Positions 5,895 to 60,723 of a stretch of 64,000 bases of DNA are shown piece by piece. Source of the stretch: Cellulomonas cellasea. GTDB lineage: Bacteria > Actinomycetota > Actinomycetes > Actinomycetales > Cellulomonadaceae. Within the stretch, counting starts at the first letter, position 1. The number at the start of each line of letters is the position of its first letter. Under the pieces are notes generated by a model, which had not been told where the DNA came from, did not search any database, and saw only the letters and a list, made by a program, of their open reading frames with translations. A program made the position numbers and the translations under genes. The stretch is taken from positions 1-64,000 of the forward strand of contig NZ_BJLR01000013.1 in the NCBI RefSeq assembly GCF_006538745.1. The letters run 5' to 3'.

Positions 5895-7055
5895 CTAGGT
5901 CAGCACCTGCGCGGTCGCGGCATGCCTGCCGTGCCGCTCCGCCCGGACGGTGACCCGGAGCCCGCCGCCGTCCCGCCCGGTGACCTCGACACGGGCCCGG
6001 TGCGCGGCGGCGATGGAGGCGACGATCGCGAGGCCGAGGCCGCGGCTGTCGTCCGCCCTCGTCTGCGTCCGCCCTCGCGTCCGCACGAACGGTTCGGTGA
6101 GCGTGGGCACGAGGTCCGCCGGGATGGTGCTCCCGGTGTTCTCGACGTCGAGGTAGGCGCCACCCTCGGCCGTCCCCGTCGCCAGCCAGATCTCGCCGCC
6201 CGGATGGTTGTGCTTGACGGCGTTCTGCACGAGGTTGGCGATCAACCGCGCCCAGAGGACCCGGCTCCCGGTCGTCGGCGCCCGGGAGAGGTCCGAGGTG
6301 ACGGTGACCCCCCGGTGCTCGATCTCCTGCCGGGCGGCGTCGAGCTCACGCCGGACGAGCGGAGCGAGGTCGAGCGCGTCGGTCCCGACGGTGCTGTCCT
6401 CCGTCTCGGCGAGGTCGAGGAGCGCCTCGACCGTGTCGATGCTCTCCTGGTTCGTCAGCCGCAGGCGGCGCGCGAGCTCGAGGAAGTCGGTGTCGGCCGG
6501 GTCGTCGAGCGCGACGGAGAGCATCGCCTTGTTCGTCGCGAGGGGCGTGCGGAGCTCGTGCGACGCGTTCGCGGCGAAGCGGCGGTGCGCGTCGAGCGAC
6601 CGGTGCAGGCGGTCGAGCATCGCGTTGAGGGCACGAGCGAGGTTGGCGAACTCGTCGTCCGGTCCGGTCAGCTGCACCCGGCGCGAGAGGTCGCCCTGCC
6701 CGATCAGCACGGCGGTGGCGTTGATCGTGTCGAGCGGACGGAGCAGCCGGCCGGCGACGAGCCACCCGATCCACATCGCCGTCACGATCACGAGCACCGC
6801 GAGCGCGACGAAGACGACGAGGCTGATCAGCGGGTCGGCAGGCTCCGCCTCGACGACCGGGGGCTCGACCGGGGCGGTGACCGCTCCCGTCGCCTCGCGG
6901 GGCCGGGTGCCGACCTGCACGAGCCCTGCGAGGCGGATGTAGGCGAGGAACAGGCCGACGAGCGCGCCCCCCGTGCTGGCCAGGAGTGCGGCGTAGACGA
7001 GCGCGAAGCGGACCCGCACCGTCCCGAGCCGCCGCCAGGCGGGCCGCCCGCTCAC
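5895..7055 (-). CDS. Sensor histidine kinase with HAMP domain
   Basis: 386 residues from GTG 7055, overlapping the response regulator stop by four bases (GTGA). Membrane segments are at about 18-40 and 78-101, bracketing a short Pro/Glu-rich extracytoplasmic loop. A HAMP domain follows (RLLRPLDTINATA). His166 in ASHELRTPL is the phosphorylated histidine. The N box is NLVQNAVKHN and the G box is DSRGLGLAIVASIAAAH. The small sensor loop suggests detection of membrane or envelope stress. The divergent operon at 7893 encodes an exporter, its likely target. It is a paralogue of the kinase at 55768. Confidence 0.92.
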   Translation of the reverse strand: MSGRPAWRRLGTVRVRFALVYAALLASTGGALVGLFLAYIRLAGLVQVGTRPREATGAVTAPVEPPVVEAEPADPLISLVVFVALAVLVIVTAMWIGWLVAGRLLRPLDTINATAVLIGQGDLSRRVQLTGPDDEFANLARALNAMLDRLHRSLDAHRRFAANASHELRTPLATNKAMLSVALDDPADTDFLELARRLRLTNQESIDTVEALLDLAETEDSTVGTDALDLAPLVRRELDAARQEIEHRGVTVTSDLSRAPTTGSRVLWARLIANLVQNAVKHNHPGGEIWLATGTAEGGAYLDVENTGSTIPADLVPTLTEPFVRTRGRTQTRADDSRGLGLAIVASIAAAHRARVEVTGRDGGGLRVTVRAERHGRHAATAQVLT

Positions 7056-54670: not shown

Positions 54671-54706
54671 CGGCGAGCCGCCGACCCCGTGTCGCCGCTG
54701 CGTCGG

Positions 54707-54751
54707 GTGGCGCTGCGGCGAGTGGCGCTGCGGCGAGTGGCGCTGCGGCGA
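54707..54751. repeat. 15-bp tandem repeat, three copies
   Basis: GTGGCGCTGCGGCGA repeats at 54707, 54722 and 54737, continuing into a degenerate unit. It lies in the 212-bp spacer (54671-54882) between the Clp-N-like gene and the Tyr-rich protein. Confidence 0.8.
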
Positions 54752-54882
54752 GTGGCGAGTGGTGATGCGGCGGGTGGTGCTCGTCGACGTCCTCCGCGCC
54801 GTCGGCTGCGGCCCCGATCGTCCCCGCCGGCCGACATCGTCACGACCGTTGAAGCGGTTGCTGAGCAGTCGTATCGTGCTGA

Positions 54883-55664: not shown

Positions 55665-55767
55665 TCGACTCGTCCGGCGACGGCAGCGGCGCTCCCTCAC
55701 CCGACCTCGGTCCGTGCGTGCCCACCGGATCCCGCGATCGAGTCCCCGGCCTGGGCGCCGAGCCGGC

Positions 55768-56973
55768 TCAGGCCTCCCTGACCCGGCTCGCGCCCTCCGC
55801 TGGCAGCGTGACCGTGGCCACCACACCCCCCTCGGGCCGGGGCACGAGGAGGAGCGACCCACCGTGCACGGTGACGATCCGCTCGGTGAGCGGCAGTCCC
55901 AGTCCGTGCGAGCGGGTCGACCCGTCGCCTGTGCCCGACCCCGCGGCGTTCACGCCCACGACGTCGACCCGGCGCGTGAACGGCTCGACCGCGAGCCGGA
56001 GCGCGTCGACGTCGACGCGCGCGCCGTCGTTCTCGACGCGGAACCGCACCCGCCCGTCACCGTCACGGTCACCCCCGCCGCCGCCGCCGCCGAGCGTGAC
56101 CACGACCCGCCCGCCCTCCGGACGGTTGTGCCGGACGGCGTTGCGGAGCAGGTTGTCGACGGCCCGGAGCAGCAGCGTCTCGTCCCCGAGCACCGTCGCG
56201 CGGTCGATCCCCGCGGTGACCGTGACGCCGCGGCTGCGCGCCTCGGGCATGAGGTCGTCGACCGCGTCGGCCACGAGCACGTCGAGGTCGACGAGCCGGT
56301 GCCCGACGGCGCCGCGGTCGAGCGCCGCGAGGTCGAGCAGGGCCGTGACCAGGTTCGTCGCGCGCTGCGTCGTCTCGTCGAGGCGCTGCAGCAGCACGGG
56401 CAGGTCGACGTCGTCGGGGTCCTCCCGCGCGACGTCGACCATCGCCCGCATCACCGCGAGCGGCGTGCGCAGCTCGTGCGACGCGTTCGCCGCGAACCGC
56501 CGCTGCGCGTGCAGGTCGCGCTCGAGCCGGTCGAGCATCGAGTCGAACGTGTCGGCCAGGTCGGTGAACTCGTCGCGCCGGGACCCCTGCGACCCGACGC
56601 GCCGGCTCAGGTCGCCGTCCGCGGCGGCCCGGGCCGCGGCGTTGAGGTGCTGCAGCGGCGTCAGCACCCGCCTGGCCAGCCACCACCCGCCGACCGACCC
56701 GACCACCGTGAGGACCGCGAGCGCCACCGCGCACGCCTGGACGACGGCGTCGAGGATCTCCCCGCGCGACGCGATGGGGCTGTCGAGGTCCCTCGGGTTC
56801 GCCGCCGTCAGCGGGTAGTTCGGCACGAACCGCAGGACGGCCCAGATGCACACGGACATCACCAGGCCGGCGACGAGCAGGAACGCGACGTAGCTGACGG
56901 TGAGCCGCAGCCGCGCGCTCGTGCGCAGGCCGGCCCGAGCGCCGTCGGGCGGACCGCCGGGCCGCGTGGTCAC
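55768..56973 (-). CDS. Sensor histidine kinase (VanS-like)
   Basis: 401 residues from GTG 56973, which overlaps the stop of the small ORF (GTGA). Helices at about 24-50 and 78-100; HAMP with RRVLTPLQHLNAAARAAADG; His166 in ASHELRTPL; N box NLLRNAVRHNRPEGG; G box RSHGLGLPLTERIV. An eight-Gly run (LGGGGGGGGD) interrupts the ATPase domain between N and G boxes. It is a paralogue of the kinase at 5895. Together with the VanY-type gene this suggests cell-wall stress sensing. Confidence 0.92.
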   Translation of the reverse strand: MTTRPGGPPDGARAGLRTSARLRLTVSYVAFLLVAGLVMSVCIWAVLRFVPNYPLTAANPRDLDSPIASRGEILDAVVQACAVALAVLTVVGSVGGWWLARRVLTPLQHLNAAARAAADGDLSRRVGSQGSRRDEFTDLADTFDSMLDRLERDLHAQRRFAANASHELRTPLAVMRAMVDVAREDPDDVDLPVLLQRLDETTQRATNLVTALLDLAALDRGAVGHRLVDLDVLVADAVDDLMPEARSRGVTVTAGIDRATVLGDETLLLRAVDNLLRNAVRHNRPEGGRVVVTLGGGGGGGDRDGDGRVRFRVENDGARVDVDALRLAVEPFTRRVDVVGVNAAGSGTGDGSTRSHGLGLPLTERIVTVHGGSLLLVPRPEGGVVATVTLPAEGASRVREA

Positions 56974-57167
56974 GACTTCCCCAGAACCCGGGTCGCTCCA
57001 TACGCCTCGGGGGCACAGGGGGCGTCCGCAGCACGCGCGTCGTCGGGCACGCCGCCGGGCCGCGCCGTCACGACCCCGCAACGCGGGCATCGGGTGGTCT
57101 GCCGGGGCTTCGCGGCATCACCCTCGGCGAGCGCGCCGTCGACTCGTCCGCCAGCGCGCCCGGTCAC
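56970..57167 (-). CDS. 65-residue ORF translationally coupled between regulator and kinase
   Basis: GTG 57167 overlaps the regulator's TGA (GTGA), and its own TGA (56972-56970) overlaps the kinase GTG by four bases. The frame is thus a coupled link in a three-gene operon. The product has a C-x-x-C pair (RQTTRCPRCGVVTARPGGVP) and a third Cys. Its start (VTGRAGGRVDGALA) and middle (VTARPGGVPDDARA) resemble the kinase N-terminus (VTTRPGGPPDGARA), pointing to an internal duplication. It could be a genuine small accessory protein or a scar of duplicated start regions. Confidence 0.5.
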   Translation of the reverse strand: MTGRAGGRVDGALAEGDAAKPRQTTRCPRCGVVTARPGGVPDDARAADAPCAPEAYGATRVLGKS

Positions 57168-57832
57168 GACTCCCCCGGCTCGCCGACCCGGTACCCGACG
57201 CCCGGCACGGTGTGAATGACCCACGGCTCGCCGAGCCGCTTGCGCAGGTCAGAGATCGTGATGCGCACGGCGTTGGTGAACGGGTCCGCGTTCTCGTCGC
57301 ACGCCCGCGCGAGCAGCTCCTCGGCGCTGACGACTCCCCCGCCCGCCCCGACGAGCACCTCCAGCACCGCGAACTGCTTGCGGCTCAGCCGCACGTACTG
57401 CCCGGCGCGGAACACCTCGCGCCGGAACGCGTCGAGCCGCAGCCCGGCCAGCTCGACGACGGGCGGTCCCGACGCCGGACGCCGGCCGAGCGCGCGCACA
57501 CGGAGCACGAGCTCCTGCATCGCGAACGGCTTGGTCAGGTAGTCGTCGGCCCCGAGCCCGAACCCGCGCGACTTGTCGTCGAGCGTCCCCGCGGCCGTCA
57601 GCATCAGCACCCGCGTCCCGAGCCCGGCCGCGACCACCCGCCGGCACACCTCGTCGCCGTGCACCCCCGGCAGGTCGCGGTCGAGGACGAGGACGTCGTA
57701 CGCGGTGTGCGAGAACCGCTCGAGCGCCTGCTCCCCGTCGTCGGCGAGGTCGACGGCGAGGGCCTCGCGGCGCAGCGCCGTCTGCACGGCCTCCCCCAGG
57801 TACCGCTCGTCCTCGACGACCAGCACGCGCAT
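57164..57832 (-). CDS. OmpR/PhoB-family response regulator (VanR-like)
   Basis: 222 residues from ATG 57832. Receiver with Asp51 in VLVLDRDLPGVHGDE and Lys in DDYLTKPFAMQEL; winged helix LSRKQFAVLEVLVGAGGGVV, ending TVPGVGYRVGEPG. First gene of the three-gene operon with the small ORF and kinase. It is divergent from the VanY-type gene (57949), whose promoter shares the 116-bp spacer, so that gene is a likely target. It is a close paralogue of the regulator at 7052. Confidence 0.93.
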   Translation of the reverse strand: MRVLVVEDERYLGEAVQTALRREALAVDLADDGEQALERFSHTAYDVLVLDRDLPGVHGDEVCRRVVAAGLGTRVLMLTAAGTLDDKSRGFGLGADDYLTKPFAMQELVLRVRALGRRPASGPPVVELAGLRLDAFRREVFRAGQYVRLSRKQFAVLEVLVGAGGGVVSAEELLARACDENADPFTNAVRITISDLRKRLGEPWVIHTVPGVGYRVGEPGES

Positions 57833-57948
57833 CGCGACCTCCGGTCACCTCGACGACGGACCGGGCGAGTCTAGGCAGCGGCGCCTATGGAAAGCGTCTG
57901 CGATTTGCCCGACGCCCCGGCAACACCCGTGCGCGTGAGGTGGGCGGT

Positions 57949-58632
57949 ATGACGACCCACGACCCGCACCGCCTCGACCCGCACCGTCCCGACCCGCACC
58001 GTCCCGTGCCGCCCCGTCCTCGCGCGCCGCGCCCTAGTCCGGCGCGCCGCCCGGTCCCGACCCGGCTCGCCGTGCTCGCGCTCGTCGCCGTCGGGGTCCT
58101 CGCCAGCGCGGCCGCAGCCGCGCCGAGCCTGCTCGCCCTGGTGCCGGGCGCGGCCGCCACCACGTCCGCCTCCCTGCTGGGCACGCTGGAGGTGCTGGAG
58201 GGCTCCGACGACGCGCGGCTGCGCGAAACGCACATCGACCCGTTCGACGACACCCACCCGGCGATCGCCGGCCTCCACCCGGACCTGCGGGCAGCCGTGC
58301 AGGCGGTCGCCCGCGACGCGCACGACCGCGGCGTCGACCTCTGGGTCACGTCCGGCCTGCGCACCGCCGCCATGCAGCAGGACCTGCTCGACGACGCCGT
58401 GCGCAAGCACGGCTCGCTCGCGGAGGCCCGGCGCTTTGTCGCGACGCCCGAGGGGTCGAGTCACGTCACCGGCGACGCGGTGGACATCGGGCCGACGGAC
58501 GGCGCTGACTGGGTGGTGCGGCACGGGGCGGAGTACGGGCTGTGCCAGACGTACGCCAACGAGATGTGGCACTTCGAGCTCGCGACGGAGCCGGGCGGGG
58601 AGTGCCCGGAGCAGCTGCCGGACGCGGGGTGA
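57949..58632 (+). CDS. VanY-type D-alanyl-D-alanine carboxypeptidase
   Basis: 227 residues from ATG 57949, after GTGAGGTGGG. The N-terminus has a His/Pro repeat (DPHRLDPHRPDPHRPVPP) and one anchor helix (RLAVLALVAVGVLASAAAAA). The M15B domain shows SSHVTGDAVDIG (His172, Asp179 zinc ligands) and NEMWHFE (His208), plus LWVTSGLRTAAMQQDLLDD. It would trim the terminal D-Ala from wall precursors outside the membrane. It is divergent from the VanR-like regulator. Confidence 0.9.
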   Translation: MTTHDPHRLDPHRPDPHRPVPPRPRAPRPSPARRPVPTRLAVLALVAVGVLASAAAAAPSLLALVPGAAATTSASLLGTLEVLEGSDDARLRETHIDPFDDTHPAIAGLHPDLRAAVQAVARDAHDRGVDLWVTSGLRTAAMQQDLLDDAVRKHGSLAEARRFVATPEGSSHVTGDAVDIGPTDGADWVVRHGAEYGLCQTYANEMWHFELATEPGGECPEQLPDAG

Positions 58633-59167: not shown

Positions 59168-59556
59168 GGGGGAACGCCGACGTGCACGAGCCGCCCGCTC
59201 CGGCGTTTCCGTTGCCCTGCCCGGGGGGCGCGTGACCCCCCAGATCTACCTCGTCGACGTCGAAGCGCTCGTCGACGTCCTGCACGCCACCCGCGCCTTC
59301 CTCGCACCCTGGGAACCCGTCCGGACCGAGTCCCCCTTCACGCTCGGGTTCGGGACCTCGGCTGGAGACGGCGTCGGCATGGTGCCGACCTCTTCTCGTG
59401 AGAAGCCCGAACCACCGGACCCGACCTGGCAGCAGACCCGACGTCCCATATGCCTCCGATGGTCGCTCACCCCAACGCGGTGCCCGACGGCTGCGAACCC
59501 GTCCGCTCGCGCGAGCCCGACACACAGTGTCGGACCGTCCCCGTACGATCACCCCC

Positions 59557-60723
59557 ATGACCGGCATCCCGATGATCGACCTCTTCGCAGGCTGCGGTGG
59601 CATGACGCAGGGGTTCGTCGAGGAGGGGTTCGAGCCCCTGCTTGCCGTCGAGTGGGACAAGGCGGCCGCCGCGACGTACGCGGCGAACTTCGGGGATGAT
59701 CACGTCATCGCGGGCGACATCGCCGAGGTGCCGACCGAAGAGATTCCGCGGGCACGTGTGATTATCGGTGGGCCGCCATGCCAAGGCTTCAGCAACCTCG
59801 GTCTCAAGGAGATCAACGACCCCCGTAATCAGTTGTGGCGGGAGTATTTGCGCTTCGTCGGCGCCGCTAAGCCAGAGGTCTTCGTGATCGAGAATGTGGA
59901 CAGATTCTCGAAGAGCCCCGAGTTCCAGATGCTGCTTTCTGAGAGGGAGCGTGGCGCTCTCCAGGATTACGAGCTCACCACGGCCGTGCTGAATGCCGCG
60001 GACTACGGTGTCGCTCAACGACGAAAGCGAACCATCATTGTCGGTTCCAGGATCGGCCACATCGAGATGCCAGCACCGACGCATGCCCAGAAGCCCGCGC
60101 TTGGCAGCGGACTCAAGCCCTGGCGCACGTTGCGTGACGTAATCGGCCACTTGCCCGCCGACCCTGCGTCTACCGAGCTACCTAGCGGCACGGACCGCAG
60201 GTGCGAATTTGATGGTGACACGATGCCTGGTCCGTTCACGGAGCTCGACCTCCACATCAAACGGAACCCGCGACCGGAGAGTCTTCAACGATACTCGTTC
60301 GTTCCTCCCGGCGGTGGCAGGTTCGACCTTCCGTACGAACTGCAGCCTCGTTGCTGGCAGGACAAGCCCACCGGCACCACCGATGTCATGGGAAGGGGTC
60401 GCTGGGACGCGCCCTCTGTGACCATCCGCACTGAGTTCTATAAGCCAGAGAAGGGCCAGTATCTGCACCCGCAGTGGGAGCGGGCGAGGATTCAGGACCA
60501 CGGCTACGAGGGGAAAATCCAAGGCGACCCGATGCGCTCCGTCGACCGTGTGATCACGCACTACGAGGCGTCGTTGATTCAGGACTTTCCGAAGGACTAC
60601 AAGTGGGTGGGAACGAAGATACAGATCGCGCGGCAGATCGGGAACGCGGTCCCCAGCGGGCTGGCTCGTGCAATCGCACGTCAAATCAAGCCGTTCCTCG
60701 ACGCTCGAGTGCCGCTGGCGTGA
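59557..60723 (+). CDS. DNA cytosine-5 methyltransferase of a type II R-M system
   Basis: 388 residues from ATG 59557. All key m5C motifs: I (MIDLFAGCGGMTQGF), IV (GGPPCQGFSN, Cys75), VI (VFVIENVDRF), VIII (VAQRRKRTIIVGS), X (IQIARQIGNAVPSGLA). The target-recognition region spans about 220-330. Codons are less GC-biased than in the rest of the window, pointing to transfer. Its 3' end overlaps the end of the convergent endonuclease gene by 38 bp. By analogy to NaeI it may modify GCCGGC, but specificity cannot be read. Confidence 0.93.
   Translation: MTGIPMIDLFAGCGGMTQGFVEEGFEPLLAVEWDKAAAATYAANFGDDHVIAGDIAEVPTEEIPRARVIIGGPPCQGFSNLGLKEINDPRNQLWREYLRFVGAAKPEVFVIENVDRFSKSPEFQMLLSERERGALQDYELTTAVLNAADYGVAQRRKRTIIVGSRIGHIEMPAPTHAQKPALGSGLKPWRTLRDVIGHLPADPASTELPSGTDRRCEFDGDTMPGPFTELDLHIKRNPRPESLQRYSFVPPGGGRFDLPYELQPRCWQDKPTGTTDVMGRGRWDAPSVTIRTEFYKPEKGQYLHPQWERARIQDHGYEGKIQGDPMRSVDRVITHYEASLIQDFPKDYKWVGTKIQIARQIGNAVPSGLARAIARQIKPFLDARVPLA

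What the first reader, a model, noticed from the sequence alone, without database searches (positions are those of the whole stretch)
56970..57832. A coupled small ORF between a VanR-like regulator and its kinase, with duplicated start segments
A 65-residue frame joins the response regulator and the kinase with perfect four-base GTGA overlaps on both sides, as expected of a real operon member. The segment VTxRPGGxPDxARA appears three times on the minus strand, starting at 57167 (degenerate), 57071 and 56973 (the kinase start). The third copy is in another frame, implying DNA duplication of the regulator-kinase junction. The small protein has a CxxC pair and could tune signalling, or the region may simply be a scar that kept the coupling.
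Basis: partly seen in the sequence, partly recalled or inferred. Interest (0 to 1): 0.55.

Follow-up and report, generated by a model that had tools for sequence, protein, structure and literature searches.

The report
Duplicated gene start bridging regulator and kinase
In an actinobacterium, a short duplicated stretch of DNA between two signalling genes forms a small reading frame that keeps the two genes' translation linked; it looks more like a bridge left by the duplication than a new working protein.

Summary
In detail: a 65-codon frame (57167-56970, minus strand) shares GTGA with the VanR-like regulator upstream and the VanS-like kinase downstream. The start segment recurs at 57167, 57071 and 56973 (spacings 96 and 98); the third-most decayed copy (57167) is only moderately supported.

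Of 57 loci comparable at this junction (window included), only one other carries an insert: a same-genus species (kinase 87-89% identical) with a 33-codon frame, coupled by GTGA and ATGA, aligning gap-free with the window's second unit. In the other 55 the kinase can start at or very near the regulator's stop.

Best reading: duplication of the kinase start made a 98-nt unit. Since 98 = 2 mod 3, the copied frame ends exactly in the next GTGA, so ribosomes are relayed from regulator to kinase. The window gained, or the sister lost, a further 96-nt in-frame segment. No family matches; GC by codon position is flat; the CxxC is not conserved.

Against a pure scar: between the two species, dN/dS is 0.40 (about 2% of neutral simulations as low), so a weak peptide constraint is not excluded.

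Closest precedent: MIRU repeats between senX3 and regX3; here no dispersed copies were found.

The parts
57164..57832 (-). VanR-O-like OmpR-type response regulator (222 aa); last codons and stop overlap the small frame
   Evidence: Response_reg and Trans_reg_C above Pfam cut-offs; best NCBIfam model VanR-O, E 3.7e-98, 327.6 bits, below its cut-off of 505
56970..57167 (-). 65-codon frame with GTGA overlaps at both ends
   Evidence: no Pfam family above cut-off (best E 0.17), no NCBIfam family at E 0.01
57081..57176 (-). unit X: first, degenerate copy (96 nt, in frame with the next unit), absent from the sister species
   Evidence: the repeat finder 73%; in-register tests moderate
56983..57080 (-). 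unit A: second copy (98 nt); its frame from 57071 is 33 codons, the same length as the sister species' whole small frame
   Evidence: gap-free local alignment to the sister unit over 95 nt; 72 of 99 nt identical over the 33 codons
56931..56982 (-). unit K: ribosome-binding region, start and leader of the kinase, likely source of the copies
57164..57167 (-). GTGA overlap, regulator stop / small-frame start
56970..56973 (-). GTGA overlap, small-frame stop / kinase start
55768..56973 (-). VanS-O-like sensor histidine kinase (401 aa: HAMP, HisKA, HATPase_c)
   Evidence: Pfam; best NCBIfam model VanS-O, 197 bits, below its cut-off of 720
57940..58632 (+). divergent VanY-type D-alanyl-D-alanine carboxypeptidase gene, probable target of the pair (inference)
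   Evidence: PF02557, 44.8 bits, cut-off 25; tblastn hits in 42 of 87 related loci, window included

Best explanation
The small frame is a translational bridge made by local duplication. The kinase's start region (ribosome-binding site, GTGA, leader codons) was duplicated next to itself, giving a 98-nt unit between regulator and kinase. Because 98 is 2 modulo 3, the copied frame runs into the TGA of the next GTGA; a ribosome ending the regulator can restart on the copy, end inside the kinase's GTGA and restart on the kinase, so coupling survives an insert that would otherwise break it. The window carries one more segment (96 nt, 0 modulo 3) that fuses in frame and lengthens the bridge from 33 to 65 codons; whether the window gained it or the sister lost it is open. 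Shown: the anatomy, its presence in two species, its absence from the other comparable loci. Inferred: the duplication, the relay, and any change of kinase dose.
For: Sister species: 33-codon frame with GTGA and ATGA overlaps at the same junction. Of 57 loci kept from 87 given (window included; 30 dropped: 24 with the kinase aligned only beyond residue 19, 3 with no kinase downstream, 1 without hits, 2 duplicates), only the window and the sister have an insert; of the other 55, 51 have an in-frame kinase start at -30 to 0 of the regulator stop end (20 with the 4-nt overlap, 25 at -8), two more do, and two start at +8 and +4. Copy tests. GC at codon positions 1/2/3 is 0.815/0.708/0.800 in the frame, 0.80/0.51/0.97 in the kinase and 0.81/0.46/0.97 in the regulator. 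The two small frames differ at 27 of 99 nt with no gap, and the junctions differ otherwise by 96 nt and by 12 nt in the kinase leader, both multiples of three: frame is kept while sequence drifts. Predicted pairing with the ribosomal anti-SD: -8.6 kcal/mol before the small frame, -5.5 before the window's kinase, -8.4 and -9.5 before the kinases of the sister and Cellulomonas phragmiteti. In tested E. coli and Haloferax pairs a gap of about 20 nt almost abolishes coupling (PMC10666635, abstract).
Against: Two species only. Between them the 33-codon frame has dN/dS 0.40 (dN 0.246, dS 0.613), close to the kinase's 0.32; 0.0245 of 2000 neutral simulations are as low and 0.016 have as many third-position changes (binomial 0.036). 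The frame is more divergent than its neighbours on average, but the kinase's most variable 33-codon stretch is about as divergent (0.61 aa, 0.66 nt identity against 0.61 and 0.73). GC3 as low as the frame's also occurs in 3% (65 codons) and 5% (33 codons) of stretches of 31 window genes, which were themselves picked for high GC3. No stop by chance is likely. Which sister segment matches which window unit is not certain: another scoring aligns X plus the start of A with the sister unit plus its kinase start (71%, 8 gaps).
Confidence: 0.66

Rival explanations
1. The small frame encodes a functional small protein that acts on the regulator or the kinase.
For: Coupled on both sides in two species; dN/dS 0.40 and a third-position excess, strongest in the first 16 codons (13 of 16 residues identical; 6 of 8 changes at third positions, binomial 0.020).
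Against: No family match; flat GC by codon position; CxxC not conserved; last 17 codons 7 of 17 identical; length 33 against 65; absent from the other 55 comparable loci. A tblastn-like search of 221 family genomes gave 27 with E <= 0.01, but past the window the sister locus (E 7.7e-5) barely exceeds unrelated places (E 4.5e-4 on).
Confidence: 0.17
2. The bridge is a kinase-dose device: each extra termination-restart lowers kinase relative to regulator, and unit number is under selection.
For: One unit in the sister, about two in the window; weaker predicted anti-SD pairing before the window's kinase than in two relatives.
Against: No expression data; two species; restart efficiency is gene-pair specific (PMC6728339 passages). 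Compatible with the best explanation, which does not need it.
Confidence: 0.12
3. The insert is a dispersed mobile repeat of the MIRU type, or an unrelated piece of DNA, that landed in the junction.
For: Same architecture as described for MIRUs; the tail of X matches an unrelated gene in another family genome almost as well as X matches the sister (66.8 against 74.0 bits).
Against: No second place covers unit A in the own genome (longest other match 75 nt, 73%, E 0.018; 40 of 436 first-look candidates scored) or the sister's unit in its genome (longest 61 nt; 40 of 370 scored); unit A resembles the adjacent kinase start in register.
Confidence: 0.05

Closest known systems
MIRUs between senX3 and regX3 of Mycobacterium (Supply et al. 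1997, cited through PMC12548453 section 11; PMC4213456 passages)
   Same: Short units, two to three in tandem, between the two genes of a two-component system; according to the review an ORF in the unit becomes coupled to the next gene with -4 nt spacing, which limits harm to expression.
   Different: MIRUs are dispersed and appear mobile; here no dispersed copy was found and the unit resembles the adjacent kinase's own start. Gene order is also reversed (kinase first in senX3-regX3). MIRU sequences were not compared.
Short upstream ORFs that 'deliver' ribosomes / bicistronic design (PMC12548453 section 11)
   Same: A short ORF whose role may be only to bring ribosomes to the next gene through an overlap.
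   Different: Here the short ORF sits inside an operon and itself receives ribosomes through an overlap.
Termination-reinitiation at 4-nt overlaps (PMC6728339, PMC10666635)
   Same: GTGA/ATGA overlaps at both junctions.
   Different: Three coupled frames in a row, the middle one apparently a copied start region.
VanR-O / VanS-O two-component systems with VanY
   Same: Best NCBIfam models for both proteins; VanY gene beside them.
   Different: Both score below the curated cut-offs; no vancomycin resistance operon was looked for.

Membership tests
MIRU-type repeat | ORF in the unit overlaps the next gene by 4 nt | tested here: met
   GTGA at 56973-56970; ATGA in the sister
MIRU-type repeat | dispersed copies in the genome | tested here: not met
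   Own genome and sister genome; only 40 of the first-look candidates were scored
MIRU-type repeat | sequence similarity to MIRUs | not tested
   no MIRU sequence was fetched or typed
Translationally coupled gene by termination-reinitiation | stop and start codons overlap or lie very near | tested here: met
Translationally coupled gene by termination-reinitiation | downstream translation depends on upstream translation | not testable with these tools
   needs reporters or ribosome profiling
Functional small protein | gene-like codon composition | tested here: not met
   GC1/2/3 0.815/0.708/0.800 against 0.752/0.525/0.957 in 31 genes picked for high GC3; 3% of their 65-codon stretches have GC3 as low
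Functional small protein | purifying selection on the peptide | tested here: inconclusive
   dN/dS 0.40 on 33 codons in one species pair; 0.0245 of 2000 neutral simulations as low
Functional small protein | CxxC conserved | tested here: not met
   CPRC in the window; the sister frame has CxxxC at another position
VanR-O / VanS-O | score above NCBIfam cut-off | tested here: not met
   327.6 against 505 bits; 197 against 720 bits

The most novel reading that the evidence does not exclude
Tandem duplication of a gene's own start region can add coupled relay frames between a regulator and its kinase; only unit lengths that restore the overlap or fuse in frame persist, and unit number sets the kinase:regulator ratio, with the N-terminal half of the relay peptide beginning to come under selection as a new small protein.
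Probability: 0.17. Interest if true: 0.5.

Novelty: new variant of a known kind. Interest (0 to 1): 0.3.

Why it matters
It gives a simple arithmetic route by which an insertion in a tightly coupled operon can be tolerated: a copied overlap of length 2 modulo 3 restores itself. It also warns that a doubly overlapping small ORF in an operon need not be a gene with its own product. If unit number changes kinase dose, it would be a natural series for testing how two-component ratios evolve.

Tried and rejected
A longer kinase from ATG 57090 (440 aa): set aside because the conserved leader begins at the GTG/ATG overlaps in the window and sister, and the upstream kinase-frame sequence differs.

RNA element: the junction RNA folds no better than shuffles (z 1.27; 182 of 200 shuffles at least as good) and Rfam gives 0 matches in 55700-58100 at gathering thresholds.

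Internal promoter for the kinase: 0 sigma-70-like sites in 56900-57950 by a simple consensus scan, which does not cover other promoter types; not excluded.

DNA search of the insert in 221 family genomes: 75 matched at E <= 1e-4, largely short GC-rich matches judged by their length; only the sister locus, G191 and G152 were inspected by alignment with a result (G009's locus gave none). The peptide search was equally noisy.

A null that drew 98-mers from the whole window included the unit itself and was not used; replace it. Overlap counts were incomplete because the walk began at the alignment start; one search replaces them.

Literature: searches., the two aimed at small ORFs in two-component operons and at start duplication, listed no paper whose title or abstract start describes a duplicated start between regulator and kinase; only listings were seen and one search listed 10 of 25. 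PMC2716512 was seen as an outline only.

Full report
Observation. On the minus strand the regulator (57832-57164), a 65-codon frame (57167-56970) and the kinase (56973-55768) follow each other with GTGA shared at each junction. The start segment occurs at 57167, 57071 and 56973, spaced 96 and 98 nt. The 57071 copy against the kinase start is well beyond chance (30/46 in register after the shared GTGACC; 0 of 8000 random window 46-mers, and 1 or 0 of 10,758 in-phase coding 46-mers). The 57167 copy is only moderately so (26/46 to the 57071 copy: 13 of 8000, 17 and 58 of 10,758; 24/46 to the kinase start: 54 of 8000, 83 and 92 of 10,758). Tandem Repeats Finder does not report an array.

What the genes are. 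The regulator is an OmpR-type response regulator and the kinase a HAMP/HisKA/HATPase protein. The best NCBIfam models are VanR-O and VanS-O, both below the curated cut-offs. A VanY-type carboxypeptidase gene lies divergently beside them, and 42 of 87 related loci (window included) have a VanY hit within the stretch held (orientation was not tallied). That VanY is the target is inference.

Relatives. In the genus, 3 of 7 genomes have a kinase match at E <= 1e-40: the window's own, G005 (89%) and G006 (43%, from residue 66). In the family, 17 of 221 genomes match at E <= 1e-70; in an order sample, 58 of 396 at E <= 1e-60, of which 30 loci were returned. One scan of genome contigs gave 40 loci. 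Of 87 loci given to the final junction count, 57 were kept: the window, G005 and 55 others, which include paralogues of the window genome and of G005. Thirty were dropped: 24 with the kinase aligned only beyond residue 19, 3 with no kinase downstream of the regulator, 1 without hits, 2 duplicates. Only the window and G005 have an insert. Of the other 55, 51 have an in-frame kinase start within 30 nt before the end of the regulator's stop (20 with the exact 4-nt overlap, 25 at -8); L027 and L037 do so, L097 starts at +8 and L041 at +4. L060 (32% identical) has a long leader open from -8 and is the least certain row.

The sister junction. G005 has one unit: a 33-codon frame, GTGA-coupled to the regulator and ATGA-coupled to the kinase. 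The window's second unit has exactly 33 codons too; the two differ at 27 of 99 positions without a gap. The junctions differ otherwise by the 96-nt first unit and by 12 nt in the kinase leader. All these lengths keep the frame. A different scoring aligns the window's first unit and the start of its second with the sister unit and its kinase start (71%, 8 gaps), helped by the identical regulator end; in register the sister unit matches the second window unit better (37/46 against 27/46).

Mechanism. A duplicated GTGA-coupled start restores its own coupling only if the unit length is 2 modulo 3, because the copied frame then meets the TGA of the next GTGA; 98 qualifies, and a further insert must be a multiple of three, as 96 is. 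In tested gene pairs of E. coli and Haloferax volcanii, gaps of about 20 nt almost abolish coupling (PMC10666635, abstract), so an open bridging frame would matter. Predicted anti-SD pairing is strong before the small frame (-8.6 kcal/mol) and weaker before the window's kinase (-5.5) than before the kinases of G005 (-8.4) and C. phragmiteti (-9.5); the background median is -3.0. That the relay works, and that it lowers kinase dose, is inference.

Is it a protein? Against: no family (PHROGs and PADLOC not searched); GC by codon position flat; GC3 0.80, as low as in only 3% of 65-codon stretches of 31 window genes, which were chosen partly for high GC3; CxxC not conserved; the last 17 codons are 7 of 17 identical. 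For: dN/dS 0.40 in the 33-codon frame (regulator 0.11, kinase 0.32, computed), as low in 0.0245 of 2000 neutral simulations, with 14 of 27 changes at third positions (binomial 0.036; 0.016 in the simulations). This is one pair of species and 33 codons. It lowers my confidence in a pure scar but does not make a protein likely. The frame is more divergent than its neighbours on average, yet the kinase's most variable 33 codons are about as divergent.

Other readings. No second copy of the unit was found in the own genome or in G005, though only 40 of 436 and of 370 first-look candidates were scored, so a dispersed MIRU-like element is unlikely. RNA structure, Rfam and sigma-70-like promoters gave nothing.

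Known comparison. The review PMC12548453 (section 11 read) describes MIRUs that insert at start codons with an ORF coupled at -4 nt; PMC4213456 (passages) notes two or three MIRUs in the senX3-regX3 intergenic region and promoter activity there. The architecture here works like that, but the origin appears local, so it is filed as a variant and not as a member.

Noticed in passing
window 57940-58632 (+): VanY-type carboxypeptidase whose N-terminal region reads as a short repeated DPHRP-like motif.
   Followed up: partly
window 5931-7022 (-) and own genome C13:211996-213054 (-): Two further kinases related to this one (40% and 43% identical), each with a related regulator directly upstream.
   Followed up: partly
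window 59398-60723 (+): Frame resembling a DNA cytosine-5 methyltransferase (recalled motif LFAGCGG and PPCQGFS; no family search run).
   Followed up: no
window about 54689-54765: Frame with a repeated RRVAL-like five-residue motif, suggesting a 15-nt tandem repeat (seen in the translation).
   Followed up: no
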